From IMG/VR virus record IMGVR_UViG_3300010375_000001, positions 1-64,000 of that record: a stretch of 64,000 nucleotides of DNA. One strand, given 5' to 3'. A program made the translations under genes and the position numbers. Of the stretch, positions 23,076 to 63,726 are shown in pieces. Every line of letters begins with the position of its first letter. The stretch's first letter is position 1. Origin of the DNA: a virus. The notes below the pieces were generated by a model that was not told the DNA's origin, ran no database searches, and worked only from the letters and a program-made list of their open reading frames with translations.

Positions 23076-24476
23076 CTAAAATTTCTTTGCCCGTGCATTA
23101 TTAATGGCCAAATTCAAGCCCAGATCCCGGAGATAGGTCTCGAACTCCGTCACCGACTTATGCCGGCACCAAGCCTGTATTTCGGCTGCTGTGGCACCAG
23201 CGCGGAACAGATCGATTACCCGCTTGTGCTTCCATCCGTAGATCGTATAGTCTTCGTGGATGCCGTTGGGCTTACGCACATGCTCGCGCCAGAACCAAGC
23301 AAACCGGCTTTCTGCGTGGCATTCGGGGCCGGGTTTGTCTTCCTTACCGAAGATATAGTACTCGCCGGGCGCTTTATCTACCCCCATCTCTCTTAACATC
23401 ATTTCCAGCTCAGGATCAAGCGGGATATAGCCCCCTTGACCGCCCTTGGCGCGGAGCGGATCGATGTAGATCTGGCCGTCGGCGAAACGAATATCTTTAC
23501 ATTTCAGCTGTCGCGTTTCTTCATCGGGCCGGGTCAGGGTATAATACACCGTCATGCAGAACCGGTAGGTGGCTAGTCCGATATCGGATACCTTGTGATG
23601 AAGTAGCAAGTGCTTTACTCGCTCCGCCATGGCATCGTCATAAGCCGTGTGGCGCGTCTTGTCCACGTGAGTAAGCTTCTTCACCTTTTCAGCCGGCGAC
23701 TCCTTAATCCATTCTTCGTCCTTTACGAACTTAAAGAGGGTTCTGAGCTTGGTCACCTTATCGTTGTAGGTGCCCTTCTTCCAATCCTTCTCCTCGCGCT
23801 TGGTGCGCAACATATCATTCAGGTCATCCTTGGTGATGTCTTTGATAGAACCTTTGACCCGGTCTCCCAGCCATTCCCCTAGCAGGCGGGTAATCACTTC
23901 ATAGGATAACCTGCTGGAACTGCCTTCCGGATGAATCATCAAGAATTTTTTCATAGCAGCTTCGATAGTCACCTTTGGCTTGGTGTCCTTCGTAATAGCC
24001 ACCATGGGAACATGTTGGCCCGTCTGCTGGTTGTACTCGTCGATGATATCTTGGAATGGGTTTAACCCATTTTGCAAGAGTAACTTGACTGAATGCAAAA
24101 GCTCTTCGGCGCACTGCTCGTAGTCTTCTTCAGATACCGTATTGAGTTTACCCTTTACCCGGAAGCGGGCCCAGTCCAGCAGCTCGCCCTTTTTATTCAG
24201 CCATTCCTTTTTGATCAGGCCGGGCGGCAGCTTCTGGAAAAGGTCGGGTGGTATCCGGTGATGATACTCAACGTAGTGGCCATTCTTCGCCTCGACGAGG
24301 CGCACGCCATAATACCGGTTAGACTTCTTTGACACTCGTTTGACACTTGGGTTAATTAAAAATACGGAATTTCTGGTAATCAGCGTGTTGCAGGGATTTC
24401 CGTTGATCGCCTGCATCAATGGAACACTTTCGGCCGGGGAGCCGTCATTGATTTTGAGGTGGTTGCGATGAGACAT
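23076..24476 (-). CDS. int: Tyrosine recombinase / phage integrase
   Basis: 466 residues from the ATG at 24476, chosen because it follows an A-rich stretch (CAAAAATACAAAAC); an upstream in-frame ATG at 24515 overlaps a repeat. The order is an arm-type N-terminal domain (about residues 45-110), a SAM-like core-binding domain (about 165-265) and a catalytic domain with TRPDEETRQLK (Arg), a Lys in RAKGGQGG, WKHKRVIDLF (H-x-x-R region), RHKS and the nucleophile near Y448 in ETYLRD. It would catalyse site-specific integration and excision. No attachment core was identified. Confidence 0.85.
   Translation of the reverse strand: MSHRNHLKINDGSPAESVPLMQAINGNPCNTLITRNSVFLINPSVKRVSKKSNRYYGVRLVEAKNGHYVEYHHRIPPDLFQKLPPGLIKKEWLNKKGELLDWARFRVKGKLNTVSEEDYEQCAEELLHSVKLLLQNGLNPFQDIIDEYNQQTGQHVPMVAITKDTKPKVTIEAAMKKFLMIHPEGSSSRLSYEVITRLLGEWLGDRVKGSIKDITKDDLNDMLRTKREEKDWKKGTYNDKVTKLRTLFKFVKDEEWIKESPAEKVKKLTHVDKTRHTAYDDAMAERVKHLLLHHKVSDIGLATYRFCMTVYYTLTRPDEETRQLKCKDIRFADGQIYIDPLRAKGGQGGYIPLDPELEMMLREMGVDKAPGEYYIFGKEDKPGPECHAESRFAWFWREHVRKPNGIHEDYTIYGWKHKRVIDLFRAGATAAEIQAWCRHKSVTEFETYLRDLGLNLAINNARAKKF
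24328..24346. repeat. 19-bp direct repeat, copy 1 (inside the 5' end of int)
   Basis: TTTGACACTCGTTTGACAC, itself two TTTGACAC octamers 3 bases apart. An identical copy lies at 24497-24515, giving four octamers around the integrase start. They may be arm-type integrase sites or an autoregulatory operator. Confidence 0.7.
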
Positions 24477-24496
24477 GTTTTGTATTTTTGTAGATT

Positions 24497-24515
24497 TTTG
24501 ACACTCGTTTGACAC
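24497..24515. repeat. 19-bp direct repeat, copy 2 (upstream of int start)
   Basis: Identical to 24328-24346; the two copies start 169 bp apart and flank the integrase start codon. Located between that start and the TTGTAC-type element at 24522. Confidence 0.7.
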
Positions 24516-25030: not shown

Positions 25031-25266
25031 ATCTTACCTTTCTTCTGCTGTCGCCCCTTGGCGAAATAATCATTGACTGCCGCTATACAAGATTCAATAC
25101 ACTGCTCGATTTCGCCGCTTGCGCTTGAATATGGTGAGCTCATGTAACTCACAGGATAACGAATGATCACTAACCACTCGGGCGACCTGAAGCTTGCATG
25201 GAAATACATTTCAAGTCCACATTGGTGGGCGATGCAAAGTTGAACAAGATCGTTAAGTCTTTTCAT
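25024..25266 (-). CDS. Small hypothetical protein coupled to the macro-domain gene
   Basis: 80 residues starting MKRLNDLVQLC at 25266; this ATG overlaps the stop of the macro-domain gene (ATGA). Basic C-terminus KGRQQKKGKIK. No family recognised. Being translationally coupled, it probably works with or alongside the macro protein. Confidence 0.6.
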   Translation of the reverse strand: MKRLNDLVQLCIAHQCGLEMYFHASFRSPEWLVIIRYPVSYMSSPYSSASGEIEQCIESCIAAVNDYFAKGRQQKKGKIK

Positions 25267-25715
25267 TTGATGGGGGGATATACGTAAATCTCCGCCTCCA
25301 AATCTTTCAGCCAGTATTCTATGAACGATTTTACCCGTTCCCAATCCAACCCTCCGTTGCCGCAACCCAAGGCGGGTATCGCAATAGAAGGGGTGTCTTT
25401 GGCAATAATCGTCTTTTTTAACGCGTTCAAGCCGCTGGCAATATAGTTGTATTCAGATGGATTCCTCCAGTGCCGTTTCGTCGGAAAGTTTATGATCAGC
25501 CGCTTGCCGTGTAGATCAGCCTCCTCGTAGCAAAACAGTTTACCGATGCCGATATGACCGCGCTCGCAGGCCTTCGCGTACGCGTCAAAATTGGCCGGAT
25601 ACCGCTCCTTGATCGCCAACGCCAAGCCTTTTCCCATCACGCCAACCAGGTTGACGGGGTTCACGATGGCATAGGCTTTCGTGTCGAGGATGTTACCGGT
25701 GCAGTAGGTGATCAT
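25263..25715 (-). CDS. Macro-domain protein (ADP-ribose processing)
   Basis: 150 residues making up essentially a lone macro domain. GNILDTKAYAIVNPVN and GVMGKGLALAIKERYP (residues about 7-40) form the ADP-ribose-binding loop 1, and IPALGCGNGGLDW (about 113-125) the second binding loop. The GCGNGGLDW type resembles Poa1p/DarG-like macrodomains that hydrolyse ADP-ribosyl phosphate or remove ADP-ribose from DNA or protein. No DarT-like partner is adjacent, so counter-defence against a host ADP-ribosyltransferase is a reasonable inference. Its leader carries tRNA-like elements. Confidence 0.88.
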   Translation of the reverse strand: MITYCTGNILDTKAYAIVNPVNLVGVMGKGLALAIKERYPANFDAYAKACERGHIGIGKLFCYEEADLHGKRLIINFPTKRHWRNPSEYNYIASGLNALKKTIIAKDTPSIAIPALGCGNGGLDWERVKSFIEYWLKDLEAEIYVYPPIK

Positions 25716-25739
25716 GGTTAGCTTATATAATCCTTTTGT

Positions 25740-25809
25740 TGTCTGTGGGGGACTCGAACTCCCATCTACTGACCTAATGCCAGCATACTACCAATTATAC
25801 TAACAGACA
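25740..25809 (-). tRNA. tRNA-like element with defective anticodon arm, in the macro gene leader
   Basis: Perfect 7-bp acceptor stem (TGTCTGT/ACAGACA), a canonical D arm with AATTGG in the loop (stem GTAT/GTAT) and a T arm with the loop TTCGAGT and one A-C mismatch. The anticodon stem GCTGG/TCAGT uses two G-U pairs and its 7-base loop is CATTAGG. That puts A rather than U at position 33 and TTA at the anticodon position. An ochre-reading tRNA is implausible because TAA is used as a stop here. It may be a decayed tRNA or a tRNA-like leader. Confidence 0.5.
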
Positions 25810-25813
25810 GACC

Positions 25814-25885
25814 AACCGAGACGGGATTCGCACCCGCAACCTCCGGCGAAACGCGCGGACTCTAAAAATTAAAGCTACTCGGATT
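25814..25885 (-). pseudogene. Degenerate tRNA-like element
   Basis: Next to the previous element. It has a closing stem CCGAG/CTCGG extended by A-T pairs with one bulge, a D-arm-like TAGCTT...TAGAGT lacking the GG pair, and a T arm GCGGG/CCCGT with loop TGCGAAT. The anticodon arm cannot be folded into 5 bp plus 7 nt. A further hairpin with a TTCG loop follows at about 25886-25918. It looks like a relic tRNA whose acceptor/T-arm half alone is kept. Confidence 0.4.
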
Positions 25886-44379: not shown

Positions 44380-44790
44380 ATGTTTACTCAACAAGAAAGG
44401 GACCTCATGCAGGCGGCTATAGCCTCACATCTACTTTACTTATACGATACTCGGGCTATGACTTTAGAACAAAAAGAAGCGGAACGTGATAAGGTGAGAG
44501 CGCTATCAGCAAAGATTGACGCAACCGCTAATAAGGGACCATATAAGCCGATTACGTTAGTCCTAGACCACATCGGATGCCTTCATATGTTTGCGGGCGA
44601 TGTTCATCCAACTGGCCGGGATCATCCGAAGGTTAATGGCCGCGAAGCGGTAACGTTTATCCAGCGGCAAGAGGACATTGAGGGTATAATGGAGTATCTA
44701 ACAGATGACGAACAAGAGAATTTAAGCGGTGGTAATCCGGTTCGTACAACGTACGTTCCGGATTACTATATCATTCCCGTTCAATCCTAA
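44380..44790 (+). CDS. Hypothetical accessory protein (136 aa)
   Basis: The start at 44380 (MFTQQERDLMQAAIASHL) is set by the initiation box after leader element 1. Helical N-terminus, then a beta-rich part with LVLDHIGCLHMFAGDVHP and an acidic C-terminus. No family recognised. Confidence 0.65.
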   Translation: MFTQQERDLMQAAIASHLLYLYDTRAMTLEQKEAERDKVRALSAKIDATANKGPYKPITLVLDHIGCLHMFAGDVHPTGRDHPKVNGREAVTFIQRQEDIEGIMEYLTDDEQENLSGGNPVRTTYVPDYYIIPVQS

Positions 44791-44839
44791 CCCCTCATTG
44801 CATAACGGCAATCTGCGTAGTTCGAGACTGCGCAGGGGT
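44790..44839 (+). promoter_or_regulatory. tRNA-minihelix-like leader element 2
   Basis: P1 ACCCCT/AGGGGT (6 bp); P2 ATTGC/GCAAT with a 6-base loop; P3 GCGTAG/CTGCGC (one G-U) with the 7-base loop TTCGAGA, a perfect T-loop sequence. P3 abuts P1. Followed by GCTAAACTTACACAC and the ATG at 44855. Confidence 0.75.
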
Positions 44840-45868: not shown

Positions 45869-45909
45869 TCCCTTGGGTCAGGCCTATGCTGTTCGAATCA
45901 GCGAAGGGA
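45869..45909 (+). promoter_or_regulatory. tRNA-minihelix-like leader element 4
   Basis: P1 TCCCTT/AAGGGA (6 bp); P2 GGT/GCC with a 3-base loop; P3 TGCTG/CAGCG (one U-G) with loop TTCGAAT, the canonical tRNA T-loop. Followed by GCGAACTAAAAACAAGATGT and the ATG at 45930. Confidence 0.75.
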
Positions 45910-46516: not shown

Positions 46517-46705
46517 ATGAAAGTAATAACTATTACGGGGAACGTTCCCGGCAAGGTGATTTTTAACTTAGAAGGTTTAACACAATTGCAAATAGCGTCC
46601 CTCTATAATGCATTAGAGGATGCTATTGCAAAAGAGCTATTCCATAATCCGACAAGGGGCGAATTGCTGAAACAGTTGCATGAAGCTATCGCCCCTTACT
46701 TATAG
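46517..46705 (+). CDS. Small hypothetical protein (62 aa)
   Basis: MKVITITGNVPGKVIFNLEG, then a helical half (ALEDAIAKELFHNP). Its stop codon overlaps the first base of the hammerhead ribozyme. No family recognised. Confidence 0.6.
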   Translation: MKVITITGNVPGKVIFNLEGLTQLQIASLYNALEDAIAKELFHNPTRGELLKQLHEAIAPYL

Positions 46706-46754
46706 GTTAACTGACGAGTCTTGAATAGACGAAAGGGGGCAACCCCTCTTAACC
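46705..46754 (+). ncRNA. Hammerhead ribozyme, type I
   Basis: All conserved parts are present in order. Stem I is GGTTAA/TTAACC (46705-46710 with 46749-46754). Core CTGACGA is at 46711-46717. Stem II is GTCT/AGAC with loop TGAAT and the conserved G10.1-C11.1 pair (46718-46730). GAAA is at 46731-46734. Stem III is GGGG/CCCC closed by a GCAA tetraloop, with A15.1-U16.1 and cleavage-site base C17 at 46748. Cleavage is predicted between 46748 and 46749. It occupies the position that tRNA-like leader elements take before other genes in this operon. Confidence 0.88.
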
Positions 46755-46792
46755 AAAAGACAGCCGCAGTCTATAACAGGCGGGCCAATGTT

Positions 46793-47452
46793 ATGAACAA
46801 GAAAAATTACCGGACCGTACGGACCAAGGTGTATCAATTTGATGCGCTGAGCGATAAGGCGAAGAAAAAAGCCATAGAGCAATGCCGCTACTTCAATGTT
46901 GATGGCGAGTGGTGGGAGTTTATCTACGATGATTTCAAGCGGATTTGCGAAACCGTTGGCGTCGACGTTGATTTAAAGAAAACCCACTTCCGTTTCTCAA
47001 GTCAGGGGGACGGGGCTGCGTTTACAGCGGATGTTGATTTGTTCAAGCTGATCGACGGCATTAACGGGGAGGCATGGCGGCAAGAGGCGCCCAACTTGGA
47101 CAAGGAAAATAACTTTACTCCTCCTCATTGCAGCGTAGATCGGCGGGTATTGGATTTGATCAAACGGGACTGGATTAGTTTCACGGTGAACCTTGAAGCG
47201 AAGGACCGGCCTTATCATACAAAGGCAGATATCGAGTACGATTACACTCAGGATTCGTGCGGGTCCTATGAGAACATTGAGAACCAGCTGGACTTATTAT
47301 ACCTATGGGTCAAAGACGTTGTCATCGAATTGAACCATTTGCTATATCGCATCCTAAAACGTGAATACGAATGGCGGACGAGCGATGAAGCGGTCATTGA
47401 AACGATCAAGGCCAACGAATATGAGTTTCTGGCTGATGGCAAACGCTTTTAA
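46793..47452 (+). CDS. Conserved phage protein (219 aa) with ribozyme-bearing leader
   Basis: Start chosen at 46793 (MNKKNYRTVRTKVYQFDALS) because the longer frame would begin inside the ribozyme. VYQFDALSDKAKKKAIEQ and FNVDGEWWEFIYDDFK resemble a family of phage and mobile-element proteins of unknown function that I recognise only by this opening. Acidic and aromatic; soluble. Confidence 0.65.
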   Translation: MNKKNYRTVRTKVYQFDALSDKAKKKAIEQCRYFNVDGEWWEFIYDDFKRICETVGVDVDLKKTHFRFSSQGDGAAFTADVDLFKLIDGINGEAWRQEAPNLDKENNFTPPHCSVDRRVLDLIKRDWISFTVNLEAKDRPYHTKADIEYDYTQDSCGSYENIENQLDLLYLWVKDVVIELNHLLYRILKREYEWRTSDEAVIETIKANEYEFLADGKRF

Positions 47453-47512: not shown

Positions 47513-47842
47513 ATGGAAACTCTACCGATGATCCCGAAGGATCAACTTATTTGCAAGAGTCATGCGGCATCGATGCTCATGATCTTTACGGAACGGCATT
47601 TCAAGGACCTCGTTTTGCACATTTATGAACGGGCTAAGAAGAACCAGGAACGATGGCTTTATTACAACCTTGTGAATATCCTTCTTTACAGGGTGACGAA
47701 CGAATGGGTCGATCAAATGGAGGCCGTTGAAATGGATGCTACCCTTATCCGCGAAATGTCCGTCAGCGATCAGGAGGAGTACGTAAGAGTGTATGAAAAC
47801 AGGTATTCGCATTGGTTGCGATATGGTGTCTTAATGCCATAA
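47513..47842 (+). CDS. Hypothetical accessory protein (109 aa)
   Basis: METLPMIPKDQLICKSHAAS start; helical, soluble, with an aromatic C-terminus. Its stop overlaps the P1 strand of the next leader element. No family recognised. Confidence 0.6.
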   Translation: METLPMIPKDQLICKSHAASMLMIFTERHFKDLVLHIYERAKKNQERWLYYNLVNILLYRVTNEWVDQMEAVEMDATLIREMSVSDQEEYVRVYENRYSHWLRYGVLMP

Positions 47843-47884
47843 CCACGCTTGGAGCTTGCAAGGGATCGTTTCCCTTGCGTGGTT
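47841..47884 (+). promoter_or_regulatory. tRNA-minihelix-like leader element 6
   Basis: P1 AACCACG/CGTGGTT (7 bp); P2 GCT-TGG-AGC; P3 CAAGGG/CCCTTG with 7-base loop ATCGTTT, abutting P1. Followed by CGAACTAAAAACAAGTGT and the ATG at 47903. Confidence 0.75.
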
Positions 47885-48830: not shown

Positions 48831-48884
48831 CAGCGGGACCGTGGTCCTTCGGGATCGGCGAGGCATTCGAAGTGCCGCCCGCTG
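48831..48884 (+). promoter_or_regulatory. tRNA-minihelix-like leader element 8
   Basis: P1 CAGCGGG/CCCGCTG (7 bp); P2 GTCC-TTCG-GGAT; P3 GGCA/TGCC (plus an A-G mismatch) with loop TTCGAAG. Followed by CTAATCAAAAACAAGTACATT and the ATG at 48906. Confidence 0.75.
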
Positions 48885-49564: not shown

Positions 49565-49610
49565 TAGCGGGCCGCACTACAGGTGCAGACATTCGCCATG
49601 TCACCCGCTG
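49565..49610 (+). promoter_or_regulatory. tRNA-minihelix-like leader element 9
   Basis: P1 TAGCGGG/CCCGCTG (7 bp, one U-G); P2 GCAC/GTGC with a 5-base loop; P3 GACA/TGTC with loop TTCGCCA plus an A-A mismatch at its base. Followed by CGAACTAAAAACTAGTAAG and the ATG at 49630. Confidence 0.72.
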
Positions 49611-51260: not shown

Positions 51261-51308
51261 AACGCCAAGCGGATGGGCCGCGCGCCGGGATCGTGTCCCG
51301 GTGGCGTT
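51261..51308 (+). promoter_or_regulatory. tRNA-minihelix-like leader element 12
   Basis: The cleanest member. P1 AACGCCA/TGGCGTT (7 bp); P2 GCGG/CCGC with a 5-base loop; P3 CCGGG/CCCGG (5 bp) with 7-base loop ATCGTGT; no linker between P3 and P1. Followed by CTAACTAAAAACAAGTAT and the ATG at 51327. P1 equals that of element 11, but P2 and P3 differ in sequence. Confidence 0.8.
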
Positions 51309-52043: not shown

Positions 52044-52087
52044 AACCCTGCTTGGAGCTACGGCCCGGATCGATGCCGGGCGGGGTT
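52044..52087 (+). promoter_or_regulatory. tRNA-minihelix-like leader element 13
   Basis: P1 AACCCTG/CGGGGTT (7 bp, one U-G); P2 GCT-TGG-AGC as in element 6; P3 CCCGG/CCGGG (5 bp) with 7-base loop ATCGATG; zero linker. Followed by CTAAAAATGTAGATCATT and the ATG at 52106. Confidence 0.78.
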
Positions 52088-53027: not shown

Positions 53028-53738
53028 ATGAAACAAAAACTAATCATCGCCATCGCTTTTTTGTTAGGCCTTGGCGTATTACCCGGTTATCTTATTGCGA
53101 AGCGCATCGTCTCTATGCGCGGCAAGAGTGAAGCCGCAGCAAAGCATACTGTCACCGACAACCCGCAGTATAACGAGCAGCTGAAGATATGGGGCGCGTA
53201 TTGGGGGCCCCGTTCGATTGTTATGTTGGGTGACTCGCATATGTACAAATGTCACTGGGATGAGTTATTAAGCCGGGACAGCATCGCCAACCAGGGCATT
53301 GGCAGCGATATAACGGAAGGATATCTGGCCCGTATTGGGTACGTTTTCGATGTGAAGCCCCGGATTTGTTTTATCGAGGGCGGGGGCAATGATATCGAGT
53401 ATAAGATTGCGCCTGCGGAGATCGTGGCCAATATCCAGCGGATCGTGGATACGTTGAAGCCGAAGGGCATTATCTGCGTGCTAACGACCGTTCCGTATGA
53501 GCTGAGCACGTTAGCCGGAGCGCAGCAATACAACGGGGCTATCGACGAGCTGAATGCACGTGTCAGGATGTATGCCTACAAAAACGGGCTGGACTACATC
53601 GATCTGAACGGGCTAACGGCACGCGACGGAGCGCTCAACCCGGATGAGGCGCAGAATGACGGCGCACATCTCACCGCAGCCGCGTACGTGAATTGGAAGC
53701 TGGCAATGGAAAAGATTTTGAAAAAGTATAAATTGTAA
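53028..53738 (+). CDS. SGNH/GDSL-family hydrolase with N-terminal membrane anchor
   Basis: 236 residues. Residues 5-24 are a membrane or signal segment. The catalytic blocks are complete: GDSH with S70, NQG with G90, GGGND with N121, and DGAHLT with D211 and H214. GDSL hydrolases of this form are esterases or deacetylases acting on acylated sugars or lipids. Exported and anchored, it could edit O-acetyl groups of host envelope polysaccharide. Confidence 0.88.
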   Translation: MKQKLIIAIAFLLGLGVLPGYLIAKRIVSMRGKSEAAAKHTVTDNPQYNEQLKIWGAYWGPRSIVMLGDSHMYKCHWDELLSRDSIANQGIGSDITEGYLARIGYVFDVKPRICFIEGGGNDIEYKIAPAEIVANIQRIVDTLKPKGIICVLTTVPYELSTLAGAQQYNGAIDELNARVRMYAYKNGLDYIDLNGLTARDGALNPDEAQNDGAHLTAAAYVNWKLAMEKILKKYKL

Positions 53739-54001: not shown

Positions 54002-54044
54002 ACCGCGTGGTCTGGCCTATCCGGGATCGTAACCTGGACGCGGG
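54002..54044 (+). promoter_or_regulatory. tRNA-minihelix-like leader element 14
   Basis: P1 CCGCGT/ACGCGG (6 bp); P2 GGT-CTG-GCC; P3 CCGGG/CCTGG (one G-U) with loop ATCGTAA; zero linker. The ATG at 54073 follows after a longer AT-rich stretch. Confidence 0.68.
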
Positions 54045-58161: not shown

Positions 58162-58207
58162 CACGGCAACGGCGTAGGCCGCATAGGAATCGCGATCCTA
58201 TGCCGTG
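58162..58207 (+). promoter_or_regulatory. tRNA-minihelix-like leader element 15
   Basis: P1 CACGGCA/TGCCGTG (7 bp); P2 CGGC-GTAG-GCCG; P3 TAGGA/TCCTA (5 bp) with 7-base loop ATCGCGA; zero linker. Followed by CGAACTAAAAACAAGGAAACG and the ATG at 58229. Confidence 0.78.
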
Positions 58208-59040: not shown

Positions 59041-59652
59041 TTATGCTTCGGCGAATCCATTGAACACATCAGCCTTCAGGATTTCGCTGTTGTAGTCAAC
59101 CTTCTTTCGGTTATTGGCGCTCCAGGACTCCCGCTGCAAGGCAGCGAAGGGATAACAAATGCGAAATAGTCCACGCCCATCTTGGGCGATATCGATGTGG
59201 CCGGCAGGGGATTGGAGAAACGTATCAAAGTAATTCCGATGCATGATATAACAGTGGAGACCGGCGAGTCGATCAGTTTTATAGACCGTTGCCGGCCCTC
59301 GAAGGGATTTACGAAACGAGGCGTGTCGGCGTAGCTCTTCAAGCTGGCGATAGTCGCCGGCAGAATAGATGTCGTATTCTGTCGGGATATGTCGCAGAAA
59401 GTAATCCCAGGCACCCTTACCTGGAAACCAGACATCGGATTCCATCACGCAGACTTCATCCAGCTCCATCTCTTGGGCTTGCCGGATCACGTTCTTGTGC
59501 GACATAGCGATGCAGTCGGCCACGACCTCGCAGCCGGAGGTAATAGCTGGCCAGATGCCGTACTCAGTGATACCCTGGCGCTGGAGCTCGCGCTCGCAGA
59601 GGATGAGCTCGGCATCATCGCGACGTAGGTCGTGTATGACGAAGACTCTCAT
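59041..59652 (-). CDS. Glycosyltransferase-like protein (GT25-like)
   Basis: 203 residues from ATG 59652 (MRVFVIHDLRRDDAELILCE), an opening like LPS glycosyltransferases of family 25. CVMESDVWFPGKGAW carries an acidic pair suited to nucleotide-sugar/metal binding. Last gene of the minus cassette; its ATG overlaps the previous gene's stop. Confidence 0.6.
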   Translation of the reverse strand: MRVFVIHDLRRDDAELILCERELQRQGITEYGIWPAITSGCEVVADCIAMSHKNVIRQAQEMELDEVCVMESDVWFPGKGAWDYFLRHIPTEYDIYSAGDYRQLEELRRHASFRKSLRGPATVYKTDRLAGLHCYIMHRNYFDTFLQSPAGHIDIAQDGRGLFRICYPFAALQRESWSANNRKKVDYNSEILKADVFNGFAEA

Positions 59653-60230
59653 GCCTTTGGTATTACAAAGTACGCCGTCTTCCAACAATTCCCATGGTGA
59701 TCGGTATGGTCTTCCTGCGGAAAGATATATCCTTCATAGTCCCGGACAAGATCTTCGCAGGCCGGGCATAAGAAACCGTCCTGGTGCCAGTTATCTACGA
59801 TCAGGATGCCGCCTTTTTGCAAGAGGATATCAATGGCGTATCGCATACATTCATATCGAAAGATACCATCTACAATGACGATGTCATAAGTCAATTCACC
59901 GACAAACTCCATCGGCGCTTCGACATATTGTCTCTCTTTCGTTCTATCCCCCTCATTCACTTCCTTCAAGAGCACAAGGCCATTAGATAACTGATGCTCC
60001 GCGCACTCTGCCTTAATCTCCATGTAAAACTCCCACTTGGTTTCAATCGTTACGACGATCTCACACTTTTTCCGAAGCCAAGCTGTCGATCTTCCTCCCC
60101 CATATTCGACCACTCTCATATTGCTTAAATCCCAACGTTCCAATACTTGTAGAAACGGATGGGTCAGCCACGGATAACAAAGACCGTTTGATGGGTCTAT
60201 CTTCTGCCAATCGACAAGTTCTTTATTCAT
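59649..60230 (-). CDS. Class I SAM methyltransferase-like protein
   Basis: 193 residues. MRVVEYGGGRSTAWLRKKC is motif I, VVTIETKWEFY motif II, YDIVIVDGIFRYECMRYAID and GGILIVDNWH motifs IV-V. Close to the Methyltransf_24 type found among glycan-modifying genes, so sugar O-methylation is likely. Overlaps both neighbours by 4 bases. Confidence 0.7.
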   Translation of the reverse strand: MNKELVDWQKIDPSNGLCYPWLTHPFLQVLERWDLSNMRVVEYGGGRSTAWLRKKCEIVVTIETKWEFYMEIKAECAEHQLSNGLVLLKEVNEGDRTKERQYVEAPMEFVGELTYDIVIVDGIFRYECMRYAIDILLQKGGILIVDNWHQDGFLCPACEDLVRDYEGYIFPQEDHTDHHGNCWKTAYFVIPKA

Positions 60231-61042
60231 GAAAGGGCAATATATTTATTATAATACTCCGCCATCCATTCCAGGTCGTCGCCAGGATACATTGTTTTGA
60301 AGAGCTTCACGATCTTATCAAAGTTTTCCGGCAGATAGCCCGGACGCGGCAGATGCGCATCGATGATATCGGTTGGGATCGGGGCGGGCCAGCCATCGCG
60401 ATCCGCGCGGAGGGTCGCGAATTGTGTACCCGGCTTGGCTCTATTATGGAATAAGATCGGCGCAGCTTCGTCACCATTCATGGCATACTCAATAATCCTG
60501 TTGTGCGCCTCCTCCTGATCTTTGCTCCAGTAGTTGCCACGGAAGTTATCGGCTTCGATGCCCTTTAACAGATCGTCAACGCACTGCTGAACAGTGCGGC
60601 CTTCTATCTTCATCGCGCTGCGCCACTCCCTCGCTGAGGCGATGATGTAGCACATCGGCAGTTGACCATCCGGCACAAGATCGTGACCGATAACATGAAA
60701 TACTTTATCGTTATGTGACAAGTCGCGAAAGATGGGCGAGAAGACGCACATATCGGCATCGCTCGTAACGAGAATTTCGTTGTCTGGGATGAACTTGAGC
60801 GCAGCGCCATAAAGCCTGGAGCACTGGGCGTATGTAGCAGCCTTGGGTCTCGGCGCCTCGATGTATACGCGGGGGCTATCGTCCAAGTATCTGGATACAA
60901 GTTCCATCTTTTCCAGATGGAGGACATCCGGCATCGTCCAGAAGATAACGCAGCTGACACCCAGCTTCTTCCAGCTGTGCACGGCGAAAGGCAAATTGAA
61001 TAAGTAAAGATCCGTAGGAGTGCAAGACAATATTGCCGTCAT
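60227..61042 (-). CDS. Glycosyltransferase-like protein with DxD motif
   Basis: 271 residues from ATG 61042 (MTAILSCTPTDLYLF). TSDADMCVF near residue 90 is a DxD-type nucleotide-sugar site, and AATYAQCSRLYGAALKFIPD precedes it as in GT-A folds. The start overlaps a NUMOD4-type fragment (61039-61221) that begins with a near copy of the same first nine residues. Confidence 0.65.
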   Translation of the reverse strand: MTAILSCTPTDLYLFNLPFAVHSWKKLGVSCVIFWTMPDVLHLEKMELVSRYLDDSPRVYIEAPRPKAATYAQCSRLYGAALKFIPDNEILVTSDADMCVFSPIFRDLSHNDKVFHVIGHDLVPDGQLPMCYIIASAREWRSAMKIEGRTVQQCVDDLLKGIEADNFRGNYWSKDQEEAHNRIIEYAMNGDEAAPILFHNRAKPGTQFATLRADRDGWPAPIPTDIIDAHLPRPGYLPENFDKIVKLFKTMYPGDDLEWMAEYYNKYIALS

Positions 61043-61221
61043 AAGGAAAGTTTCGTTTTTCTTACCATTGGTAACCCGGTAATATGATTCCAAATAATCC
61101 CTTTATGGATGGAGGAAATTGTCCAAGCTTTGTCGGAGATTTTATAGTAGCCTTCGTATCCTTCAATATCCTTCCATATTTCTTCGGCTTCAGGCGTCAC
61201 ACTCAAGATCGCTGTCATCAT
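61039..61221 (-). CDS. NUMOD4-domain fragment (homing endonuclease remnant)
   Basis: 60 residues: after MMTAILSVTPEAE comes EIWKDIEGYEGYYKISDKAW, the signature of the NUMOD4 module at the N-terminus of HNH homing endonucleases. The HNH domain is absent. The first residues copy the start of the neighbouring glycosyltransferase, as if the endonuclease had been inserted at that gene's 5' end and then largely deleted. Confidence 0.6.
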   Translation of the reverse strand: MMTAILSVTPEAEEIWKDIEGYEGYYKISDKAWTISSIHKGIIWNHITGLPMVRKTKLSL

Positions 61222-61411
61222 CGGATTGATTATTGGTTATAGTCTTAATTGACTTCTTCAACTTGGCCAGAGCCATCAATGCGCCAACCATATTTCTTAA
61301 GGCCGTAGTATCCGGCGCATGTTTGGTATCAACAAGCGTATACCGAATCTCGTCGTTGGTTTCCTCTACACGAATTACAAACTCATTTGGCTGAAGAATC
61401 ACCACGGCCAT
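61190..61411 (-). CDS. Small hypothetical protein (73 aa)
   Basis: MAVVILQPNEFVIRVEETND start, beta then helix, ending in an acidic tail. Overlaps both neighbours. No family recognised. Confidence 0.5.
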   Translation of the reverse strand: MAVVILQPNEFVIRVEETNDEIRYTLVDTKHAPDTTALRNMVGALMALAKLKKSIKTITNNQSDDDSDLECDA

Positions 61412-61718
61412 AGTATCGTTTTTGCTGTTTTAACTGCTCCACCTGCTTATTTAGCTGGGACCACTTATATCTCAACTCTACCAGTTCTTTCTTAAGCGAG
61501 TTTATTTGTTCAAAATGATACCCGCCATTGCAAGCCGATGCAAAAACAAAATCGAACGCATCCAAATATGCGCCACACCCATCGCATTGGATGGCGCGTT
61601 CGTGTTCGTCTACAGTGACGTGATCGTGCTCGCACCTTCTTTCTTTGCGCTTCGGGCTTAACAGAAGGCCATCTTTTGGCCGATCTTTTAGTGAGATAAC
61701 TTTGCTTTCAGAGTCCAT
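61383..61718 (-). CDS. Zinc-binding coiled-coil protein (111 aa)
   Basis: RRCEHDHVTVDEHERAIQCD and GCGAYLD give a C-x-H...C-x-x-C site, followed by a coiled coil (residues about 70-100, LKKELVELRYKWSQLNKQVE). A short zinc-finger/coiled-coil layout seen in several phages; function unknown. Confidence 0.6.
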   Translation of the reverse strand: MDSESKVISLKDRPKDGLLLSPKRKERRCEHDHVTVDEHERAIQCDGCGAYLDAFDFVFASACNGGYHFEQINSLKKELVELRYKWSQLNKQVEQLKQQKRYYGRGDSSAK

Positions 61719-62391
61719 TTATAAAGAAGAGACATTTTCTTGGATCATATCCACCGCCATAGTACGCTACATAGTCAGGCTCATCGATGGCGAGATGGCA
61801 GTTATACATAGCCAAAGAGAGGCATGACTGATCCTGTCGGTGGTGCAGGAATCTTCCATCTTGAGATTCGCCGTTATGCGTACGGGCGCCTTTGTTTAGT
61901 CCCTGATCCATGTAGGCCTTCCACTGGAGGTACAGTTTGCGGGCGTCCGGGTTATTAAAGTTAAGACCCACGATCCCGGAGGCATATTCCGGGAAGGCCT
62001 CGATATCATCGCGCTCGATTCCCAATGCAGCAAGGGCCGCATCGTTGATCGTTTGTGCGAGGTTGTAACCGGACCTAAACATAAAAAATCCTTTTTGATT
62101 TACCAAATCAAAAACCTGCATTGGGTTTCGGATGGCCCAAAATGATGCATCCAAGTAGATAATTTGAGTATATCCTCTCCACAACGCCCATTCAAACGCC
62201 CCTATTTTAAAGTAGTACGGACTTTCATTATGTGACATGCATCCTGGGGGGTATGTGTCCCGCCAAAAAATCATATCTCCCGGAAAGCCATGGAAGATGA
62301 GAGATTTCTCAAGGCGATCGATACCTGATGGATACCATGCCCCGATCCCCACTCCAATTATACATGGTTTATTGTTTCTGTTTATTTCCAT
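61708..62391 (-). CDS. Nucleotide-sugar transferase-like protein (GT-A fold)
   Basis: 227 residues from ATG 62391 (MEINRNNKPCIIGVG), preferred because the upstream in-frame extension coincides with homing-endonuclease debris in another frame. YTQIIYLDASFWAIRNPMQV (about residues 72-91) contains the metal-binding LDA position of glycogenin/GT8-like enzymes. Part of the glycan cassette. Confidence 0.6.
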   Translation of the reverse strand: MEINRNNKPCIIGVGIGAWYPSGIDRLEKSLIFHGFPGDMIFWRDTYPPGCMSHNESPYYFKIGAFEWALWRGYTQIIYLDASFWAIRNPMQVFDLVNQKGFFMFRSGYNLAQTINDAALAALGIERDDIEAFPEYASGIVGLNFNNPDARKLYLQWKAYMDQGLNKGARTHNGESQDGRFLHHRQDQSCLSLAMYNCHLAIDEPDYVAYYGGGYDPRKCLFFINGL

Positions 62392-62488
62392 CCGTGATTT
62401 TTTTATATGATTGTCCTCTTTTAATAAGGCCAATAACTGTATGAGAAACATTAAACCGCTTAGCGATCGAACGATGGGTGCCTGTCAT
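62369..62488 (-). pseudogene. C-terminal HTH fragment of a homing endonuclease
   Basis: The frame encodes THRSIAKRFNVSHTVIGLIK then RGQSYKKI, a DNA-binding HTH like those ending HNH homing endonucleases (IENR1/NUMOD1-associated). Only 39 residues remain, overlapping both flanking glycosyltransferase genes. With the NUMOD4 fragment at 61039 it marks past endonuclease insertions. Confidence 0.5.
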
Positions 62489-63059
62489 CAATATTGTATT
62501 TTACGTAATAATAAAGTTGCGCGGGGATATGGACCTCGCTTTTGAGTAGCGGCTTGATCGCCCGCGCAAAGGCGTGATCTTCGCCAAAAGAGATGGGAGG
62601 AATAGTTGCCTGCCGGCAGATCGAAGTGAGGATGGGCGTTTTAAAGAAGGGGGTTCGAACATAGTCGAAGCCGTCCTGGTTGTTGCCCCAATCGGCATAC
62701 TTCAGACTGAAGTTAGATCGTTGTTCAGCGCCATCGATCAGGCAGCGCTCTTCGAAGGTGATGCAATGAGAGCCCGTTCCAGCGGCTGTACAGATGGCCC
62801 GGAGAGAAGTGTTAGCAACATCGTCGTCGTCGTCGATCTGCCAGCTGTAGAGCCCGGAGGCTCTCCTGTACAGCTCGGCGCGCTTTTCGCCGATGGACAC
62901 TTCGCGGTTATCGGATAGAAAGATGATCTCGATCTTTTCCTCCAGCCCGTCCAGGTCGATCAACCGATGAAGGTAGTCAACCAGTCGCTCCAGCTTCTGC
63001 CGTCTTTCCCTGATCGTCGGGATAAGAATGCTTAACAAAGGTATATTGTCCGTTGTCAT
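62460..63059 (-). CDS. Glycosyltransferase family 2-like protein
   Basis: 199 residues. LLSILIPTIRERRQKLERLV opening and LYSWQIDDDDDVANTSLRAI with the DDDD nucleotide-sugar site are GT2-like; HPSFDR ends the protein within the HTH debris. Overlaps the next gene by 83 bases. Confidence 0.68.
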   Translation of the reverse strand: MTTDNIPLLSILIPTIRERRQKLERLVDYLHRLIDLDGLEEKIEIIFLSDNREVSIGEKRAELYRRASGLYSWQIDDDDDVANTSLRAICTAAGTGSHCITFEERCLIDGAEQRSNFSLKYADWGNNQDGFDYVRTPFFKTPILTSICRQATIPPISFGEDHAFARAIKPLLKSEVHIPAQLYYYVKYNIDDRHPSFDR

Positions 63060-63726
63060 CTAAAAAGAATTTGTTATTGGCACGATAATGGTAAAGCTTT
63101 TCATCGTGATCCCACATGCCCTGTTGGCGCGTGTACTGCTCATCCCAGGGAACATGTCCATAGGCTGGGTGGAAATGATCGAAGAGCTGCGTGCCCAGGT
63201 AGAAGTAGCGGCCGCGCAGCTTGGCCGCCTCTTGGGCCTCGTTATCGCAGAAGACCGACCAATACTCCGGATAATAGATGAACCTATCCCGCTCGAAGTA
63301 GGCGCGATCCATCACTGACATAGTGGAAAGCATGTTTCTCGCGGTGGAGTCGGGATAATGCAGGAAGACGTCTGGCCCGTTGCAGCGGACGCCTTCCCGT
63401 ATTAAGTGATCCCAGCCGTAGACAGTGAAGCGCATGTCGTCGGAGAAGTTGACCAGGATATCCCAATTGACCAATGGGATATCGCGGTTGATCGCATCGA
63501 TCTTCGATTTGGAATATCCATAAGCTAATTGGAAATGAGGGATTCGTTCCACTTTATCGCGTAGAATATGGTCATACTCTTCAAAAAGGGGATCGTCCAG
63601 ATCAATACAGAAGGACAAGAGAAGATCCGTGGGACTATTGGCCAATTGTAAAATACTATCAAGCCCTTCGGCGAAGCGTTTTGGCCTCGATCGGCTCGCG
63701 TACTTAACCAGGATGCGCGGCTCCAT
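62977..63726 (-). CDS. Glycosyltransferase-like protein (GT-A fold)
   Basis: 249 residues. ILVKYASRSRPKRFAEGLDS opening, LVNFSDDMRFTVYGWDHLIR with a DD pair near residue 95, and a C-terminal WDHDEKLYHYR. This layout is shared with phage glycosyltransferases that modify virion or host glycans. The stop of the next gene overlaps its ATG. Confidence 0.65.
   Translation of the reverse strand: MEPRILVKYASRSRPKRFAEGLDSILQLANSPTDLLLSFCIDLDDPLFEEYDHILRDKVERIPHFQLAYGYSKSKIDAINRDIPLVNWDILVNFSDDMRFTVYGWDHLIREGVRCNGPDVFLHYPDSTARNMLSTMSVMDRAYFERDRFIYYPEYWSVFCDNEAQEAAKLRGRYFYLGTQLFDHFHPAYGHVPWDEQYTRQQGMWDHDEKLYHYRANNKFFLDDNGQYTFVKHSYPDDQGKTAEAGATG

What the first reader, a model, noticed from the sequence alone, without database searches (positions are those of the whole stretch)
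46705..46754. Complete hammerhead ribozyme (type I) in a phage 5' leader
Stem I GGTTAA/TTAACC, CTGACGA, stem II GTCT/AGAC, GAAA, stem III GGGG-GCAA-CCCC with the A15.1-U16.1 pair, and C17 are all present in order with the conserved G10.1-C11.1 pair. It starts on the stop codon of one gene and precedes the next, exactly where other genes in the operon carry tRNA-like leaders. Self-cleavage between 46748 and 46749 would separate the two cistrons and leave a 5'-OH leader of 44 bases before the ATG at 46793. Hammerheads are known in bacterial and phage genomes; intercistronic use beside the other elements here appears new.
Basis: seen in the sequence. Interest (0 to 1): 0.93.

Follow-up and report, generated by a model that had tools for sequence, protein, structure and literature searches.

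The report
Self-cutting RNA between two phage genes
A virus of bacteria carries, exactly at the end of one gene and just before the next, a complete hammerhead ribozyme that should cut its own messenger RNA in two; such elements have been known in phages since 2011, but hundreds more with the same layout turn up here, one of them in a cultured phage where their still unknown purpose can be tested.

Summary
Window 46705-46754 (+) is a textbook type I hammerhead ribozyme (HHR): 6-bp stem I, CUGACGA, 4-bp stem II, GAA, A15.1-U16.1, stem III, C17. A covariance model built from 51 HHRs of other viruses, window excluded, scores it 68.2 bits (E about 1e-15). Rfam's own model scores it below cut-off (21.8 against 34 bits).

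It belongs to a widespread phage class. In 293 unique HHRs, stem I is 6 bp in 97%. The element sits on the upstream stop codon (82%, 18% at random sites), and a start codon follows 10-25 nt later in most. Neighbouring genes share no common family. Flavobacterium phages elemoA-F, cultured kin by terminase, carry one whose stem II alleles show natural compensatory change (GACT/AGTC and GGTT/AACC).

Most likely function: co-transcriptional self-cleavage of a polycistronic transcript at the gene junction. Competence is strongly supported by sequence; the in vivo role is inferred.

Apparently undescribed: the fixed stop-codon layout, the tRNA-like elements at other junctions of this genome, and the natural paired and mismatched alleles.

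The parts
46517..46705 (+). upstream ORF, 62 aa, unknown function; its TAG stop (46703-46705) shares G46705 with the ribozyme
   Evidence: no Pfam or PHROG match
46704..46704 (+). unpaired A just before stem I, kept in 278 of 293 relatives; probable tertiary-contact position
46705..46710 (+). stem I, 5' strand GGTTAA
46711..46717 (+). catalytic core CUGACGA (C3-A9)
   Evidence: core letters intact in the 150 best relatives
46718..46730 (+). stem II GTCT/AGAC with loop TGAAT (class consensus U-N-A-N-U)
46731..46733 (+). core G12 A13 A14
46734..46747 (+). stem III: A15.1-U16.1 plus GGGG/CCCC, loop GCAA
46748..46749 (+). predicted cleavage after C17 (46748), leaving 2',3'-cyclic phosphate upstream and 5'-OH downstream
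   Evidence: position follows from established hammerhead chemistry; not tested
46749..46754 (+). stem I, 3' strand TTAACC
46755..46756 (+). AA just after stem I, conserved in the class (A at +1 in 264 and at +2 in 224 of 293)
46749..46792 (+). 44-nt leader of the downstream gene after cleavage
46793..47452 (+). downstream gene, 219 aa, phrog_5162, unknown function; homologues support the ATG at 46793
44790..44839 (+). tRNA-like element (acceptor-like stem plus T-arm-like hairpin, no anticodon arm) at another gene junction
45869..45909 (+). tRNA-like element at a gene junction, followed by GCGAACTAAAAACAAG
47841..47884 (+). tRNA-like element at a gene junction, followed by CGAACTAAAAACAAG
48831..48884 (+). 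tRNA-like element at a gene junction
49565..49610 (+). tRNA-like element at a gene junction
51261..51308 (+). tRNA-like element at a gene junction
52044..52087 (+). tRNA-like element at a gene junction

Best explanation
The element is a catalytically competent type I hammerhead ribozyme that cuts a polycistronic phage mRNA at a gene junction. As the RNA polymerase passes 46754 the ribozyme folds and cleaves after C46748. The upstream mRNA then ends in the stem II and stem III hairpins with a cyclic phosphate; the downstream mRNA begins with a 5'-OH and a 44-nt leader. The two cistrons get separate half-lives and translation. Because the stop codon lies on or inside stem I and the core, a ribosome finishing the upstream gene would melt stem I, which should release the downstream product and prevent re-ligation. 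Shown from sequence: intact core and stems, class membership, junction position, and natural compensatory change in one relative. Inferred: cleavage of this RNA, timing, the stability effects and the ribosome-release step.
For: Complete motif, far beyond chance. Independent covariance model 68.2 bits, built from 51 sequences with 13 of 15 pairs changed on both sides. That pairing is not forced by selection: of 109 unique matches picked without requiring stems I or III, 103 have both. Geometry of 293 relatives: stem I 6 bp in 284; upstream stop within -40 to +26 in 82%, 18% at random sites; stops at discrete places, TAG ending on nucleotide 1 (31), TAA at 4-6 (56), UGA of the core at 8-10 (52), loop II at 18-20 (23); start codon mostly 10-25 nt downstream. 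Copies in one locus co-oriented in 60 of 61 multi-copy loci, 1 to 11 per virus record. Downstream genes fall into 190 clusters among 260, so no common target gene. Six Flavobacterium elemo records read: one with stem II GACT/AGTC, three with GGTT/AACC, two with the mismatched GACT/AACC. Phage HHR clusters cleave in vitro and in E. coli (PMC3088659).
Against: No cleavage data for this RNA. The downstream leader is longer (38 nt after stem I) than in most relatives (10-25 nt), so this copy is not fully typical. Some extents of flanking RNA give an alternative lowest-energy fold that breaks stems I and II (46690-46810, gap 4.5 kcal/mol, larger than in 92% of relatives), although with more upstream sequence the ribozyme fold is the optimum again. 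No orthologue with the same two flanking genes and an HHR was found: the downstream-gene homologues in L001-L005 have none.
Confidence: 0.8

Rival explanations
1. Active ribozyme, but selfish or incidental: a small cassette that carries stop codons in its own sequence and so settles harmlessly behind genes, with no benefit from cleavage.
For: The core supplies a UGA and GGTTAA a UAA, so a lost native stop is replaced at once. Neighbouring genes are not constant. Copy number varies from 1 to 11.
Against: Stem III differs between copies of one locus (11 of 196 pairs share its first 7 nt), so there is little sign of recent copying. Stem II is re-paired by compensatory change in the elemo phages. 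The tight distance to the next start is hard to explain without function.
Confidence: 0.12
2. Cleavage followed by ligation: because copies in a phage often share stem I, a 3' product could be joined to another ribozyme's 5' product, giving trans-spliced or circular mRNAs.
For: Identical stem I in 85 of 196 within-locus pairs against 35% for random pairs; in loci without GGTTAA 18 of 111 against 2%. Perreault et al. raised the idea (PMC3088659).
Against: Most pairs within non-GGTTAA loci differ in stem I. Perreault et al. looked for such products and found none. This genome has a single copy, leaving no partner.
Confidence: 0.03
3. The structure is kept as a stable intercistronic hairpin, not as a ribozyme.
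For: Other junctions of this phage carry stable structures without a hammerhead core.
Against: All unpaired core letters are intact here and in the 150 best relatives, as are loop II U-N-A-N-U and the flanking A's, which a mere hairpin would not need.
Confidence: 0.05

Closest known systems
Phage and prophage hammerhead ribozymes between genes (Perreault et al. 2011, PMC3088659; Rfam RF00163)
   Same: Type I architecture and core; placed between genes in phage operons, sometimes in clusters; proposed role in cutting long phage transcripts.
   Different: The fixed 6-bp stem I carrying or abutting the stop codon and the start 10-25 nt later are not stated in the parts read. The Rfam model misses most of the class: 2 matches over cut-off in 15 loci where the class model finds 59.
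Halovirus HF1/HF2 hammerhead (HHphage in PMC3088659)
   Same: A hammerhead a few nucleotides upstream of a start codon in a viral polycistronic transcript, with a mapped 5' end at the cut.
   Different: Core variant in an archaeal virus; the present one has the canonical core.
HDV-like theta ribozymes of gut phages (PMC10879173)
   Same: A self-cleaving ribozyme used by phages to process their own transcripts.
   Different: Another fold; acts on tRNA transcripts, not mRNA junctions.
Twister ribozymes near phage genes (work cited in PMC10085705)
   Same: Share phage neighbourhoods with hammerheads; here a twister-P3 lies in HHR locus L069 and a sub-threshold twister-P1 in L213.
   Different: Another fold; none in this window.

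Membership tests
Hammerhead ribozyme, type I | C3 U4 G5 A6 N7 G8 A9 and G12 A13 A14 core | tested here: met
   46711-46717 and 46731-46733
Hammerhead ribozyme, type I | Three stems around the core, open at stem I, with G10.1-C11.1 and A15.1-U16.1 | tested here: met
Hammerhead ribozyme, type I | H17 at the cleavage site | tested here: met
   C46748
[quoted passage not shown]
   conserved letters present (A-1, A+1, A+2, loop U-N-A-N-U); the contact itself is not computed
Rfam RF00163 as a library model (not a structural definition of the hammerhead) | Score over the gathering cut-off | tested here: not met
   21.8 of 34 bits; most members of this phage class miss it too, so this is a limit of the library model and not a structural defect
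Hammerhead ribozyme, type I | Mg2+-dependent self-cleavage | not testable with these tools
   needs an in vitro assay
Phage intercistronic HHR class (this work) | 6-bp stem I flanked by A and AA, on a stop codon, same strand as the genes, start shortly downstream | tested here: met
   start 38 nt downstream is at the long end

The most novel reading that the evidence does not exclude
These phages treat the gene junction as a slot for interchangeable RNA-cutting modules: hammerhead or twister ribozymes that cut themselves, or minimal tRNA-like elements (acceptor stem, TGG elbow, T-arm, no anticodon arm) cut by host tRNA-processing enzymes. Each junction of a polycistronic transcript is thus made into an mRNA end, and the ribosome terminating inside the module drives product release.
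Probability: 0.3. Interest if true: 0.85.

Novelty: new member of a known kind. Interest (0 to 1): 0.55.

Why it matters
The reason phages keep self-cleaving ribozymes is still described as unknown (PMC10085705). The strict layout found here (stop codon in or on the ribozyme, start 10-25 nt on, no preferred gene) argues for general cutting of transcripts at gene ends. The elemo alleles on a cultured Flavobacterium host give natural paired and mismatched forms with which to test it. Rfam's hammerhead model overlooks most members, so their abundance in viral genomes is underestimated.

Tried and rejected
Rfam at its own cut-offs: no hit, because the model is a poor fit to this class. DNA similarity to named phages over 8 kb: none. 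Homologues of the downstream gene (L001-L005): no ribozyme upstream. One short BLAST query against phages gave only chance matches; a set of variants found the elemo phages. A regulatory switch was considered because the downstream leader can pair with the core in some extents; rejected, since the pairing is no better than with shuffled leaders (27% as good) and loses its advantage with more upstream sequence. Covariation counts on A1 alone were not relied on, because those sequences were collected by pairing; the test replaces them. A covariance model of the tRNA-like elements was not built: the alignment (A2) did not register the acceptor stems.

Full report
THE OBSERVATION. The sequence at 46705-46754 (+) contains all parts of a type I hammerhead in order, and its minimum-energy fold is that structure. 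A strict descriptor finds it once in the window on both strands; in 300 simulated windows the expected number at stems of at least 4/4/4 was 0.003. Rfam's Hammerhead_1 model aligns it end to end but at 21.8 bits, under its cut-off of 34. The upstream ORF ends with TAG at 46703-46705 and the downstream gene starts at 46793, a start supported by homologues. The record is a 74,021-base IMG/VR virus and holds no second copy. Its terminase is closest to those of phages of Bacteroidota, among them Flavobacterium and Cellulophaga phages, so the host is probably a member of Bacteroidota (inference).

RELATIVES. Of 109 unique matches away from contig ends, 103 also have stem I and stem III, so these are hammerheads and not chance cores. 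A second scan biased to GGTTAA also reached its limit. In 293 unique elements from 187 loci, stem I is exactly 6 bp in 284, preceded by an unpaired A in 278 and followed by A in 264. Loop II is U-N-A-N-U in the aligned set. The literature describes loop II to stem I contacts as what makes hammerheads fast (PMC6155905), so these letters probably make that contact (inference). The window has all of them.

A covariance model from 51 of these, window excluded, scores the window at 68.2 bits. Whole-record searches give 1-11 copies per virus record in 25 records chosen because they hold at least one. Copies in one locus point the same way in 60 of 61 multi-copy loci, and all core letters are intact in the 150 best matches, which the model favours by construction.

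POSITION. An ORF of at least 60 codons ends within -40 to +26 of the ribozyme start in 82% of cases, against 18% at random positions of the same loci. The stop codons fall at discrete places: TAG ending on nucleotide 1 (31 cases, the window's type), TAA at 4-6 (56), UGA of the catalytic core at 8-10 (52), and loop II at 18-20 (23). A start codon opening at least 40 codons follows mostly 10-25 nt after stem I; 81% lie within 40 nt, against 21% at random. Downstream genes fall into 190 clusters among 260 and upstream genes into 172 among 251, so the element is tied to the junction and not to a gene.

A CULTURED CASE. Flavobacterium phages elemoA-F on Flavobacterium sp. BAL314 carry one hammerhead at the end of a short ORF, with the same TAG arrangement as the window. 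All 68 matching elemo records hold the site. I read six records directly. One (elemoE_6-9C) has stem II GACT/AGTC; three (elemoA_15-9B, elemoA_8-9C, elemoB_14-3B) have GGTT/AACC, the compensatory double change; two (elemoE_10-3D, elemoF_6-3D) have the mixed, mismatched GACT/AACC. Nine records are at least 99% identical to the 6-9C sequence over 161 bases; the remaining records were counted by identity only and their alleles were not read. Recombination between the two paired alleles could have made the mixed one (inference).

THE OTHER JUNCTIONS. Spacers elsewhere in 44-52 kb hold structured elements. A descriptor for an acceptor-like stem enclosing a T-arm-like hairpin with a 7-nt loop finds 12 places in the window against 2.3 in simulated sequence; nine of them lie on the + strand between 44.7 and 58.3 kb, at gene junctions where checked, several followed by GAACTAAAAACAAG before the start codon. 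The same kind of element, with a TGG motif between acceptor and T-arm, occurs 33 times in 218 hammerhead-selected loci and 0 times in their shuffles; L207, L213 and L222 show both kinds. In the reverse direction only 2 of 119 loci chosen for the tRNA-like element hold a hammerhead, so the two are not generally linked. RNase P is known to cut some tRNA-like and polycistronic mRNA substrates (PMC11143913); that it cuts these is a guess.

MECHANISM. Best reading: co-transcriptional self-cleavage that makes mRNA ends at gene junctions. Shown: sequence, structure, class, position, compensatory change in a relative. Established for the family, not for this RNA: cleavage chemistry, and activity of phage hammerheads in vitro and in E. 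coli. Inferred: separate half-lives of the two cistrons, and help from the terminating ribosome in releasing the downstream product. Energy calculations give mixed results depending on how much flank is included; they neglect tertiary contacts and co-transcriptional folding.

NOVELTY. Perreault et al. 2011 already described phage hammerheads between genes and proposed this use, and the link of hammerheads and twisters with phage genes is recorded with its reason called unknown. Searches of the held library found no later survey of this class; most subscription papers are not held, so this is weak evidence of absence. The window's element is therefore a new member of a known kind. The strict layout, the elemo alleles, the limited reach of the Rfam model and the co-occurring tRNA-like elements are what may be new.

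Noticed in passing
window 44790-44839, 45869-45909, 47841-47884, 48831-48884, 49565-49610, 51261-51308, 52044-52087, 54003-54043, 58162-58207 (+): tRNA-like elements (acceptor-like stem, T-arm-like hairpin, no anticodon arm) at gene junctions, several followed by GAACTAAAAAC and the next start codon.
   Followed up: partly
No Rfam family matches it as a whole.
   Followed up: partly
L069 6669-6747; L213 9225-9286: Twister ribozymes (P3 over cut-off, P1 below) in hammerhead-bearing viral contigs.
   Followed up: no
window 25738-25809 (-): tRNA gene called tRNA-Stop by ARAGORN (anticodon TTA); the anticodon was not checked further. A degenerate second tRNA match lies at 25813-25884.
   Followed up: no
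window 23076-24515 (-): Integrase (phrog_1) near the tRNA genes, so the phage may be temperate with a tRNA attachment site.
   Followed up: no
window 25263-25715 (-): Protein of phrog_335 ('phosphatase'), which reads like a macro-domain protein.
   Followed up: no
L351 2962-3069 and the matching ORF in other elemo records: A short ORF annotated antisense to the elemo hammerhead; probably a spurious gene call over the ribozyme.
   Followed up: partly
window 59041-63726 (-): A run of ORFs on the - strand, several of which read like glycosyltransferases; also a GDSL lipase at 53028-53738 (+).
   Followed up: no
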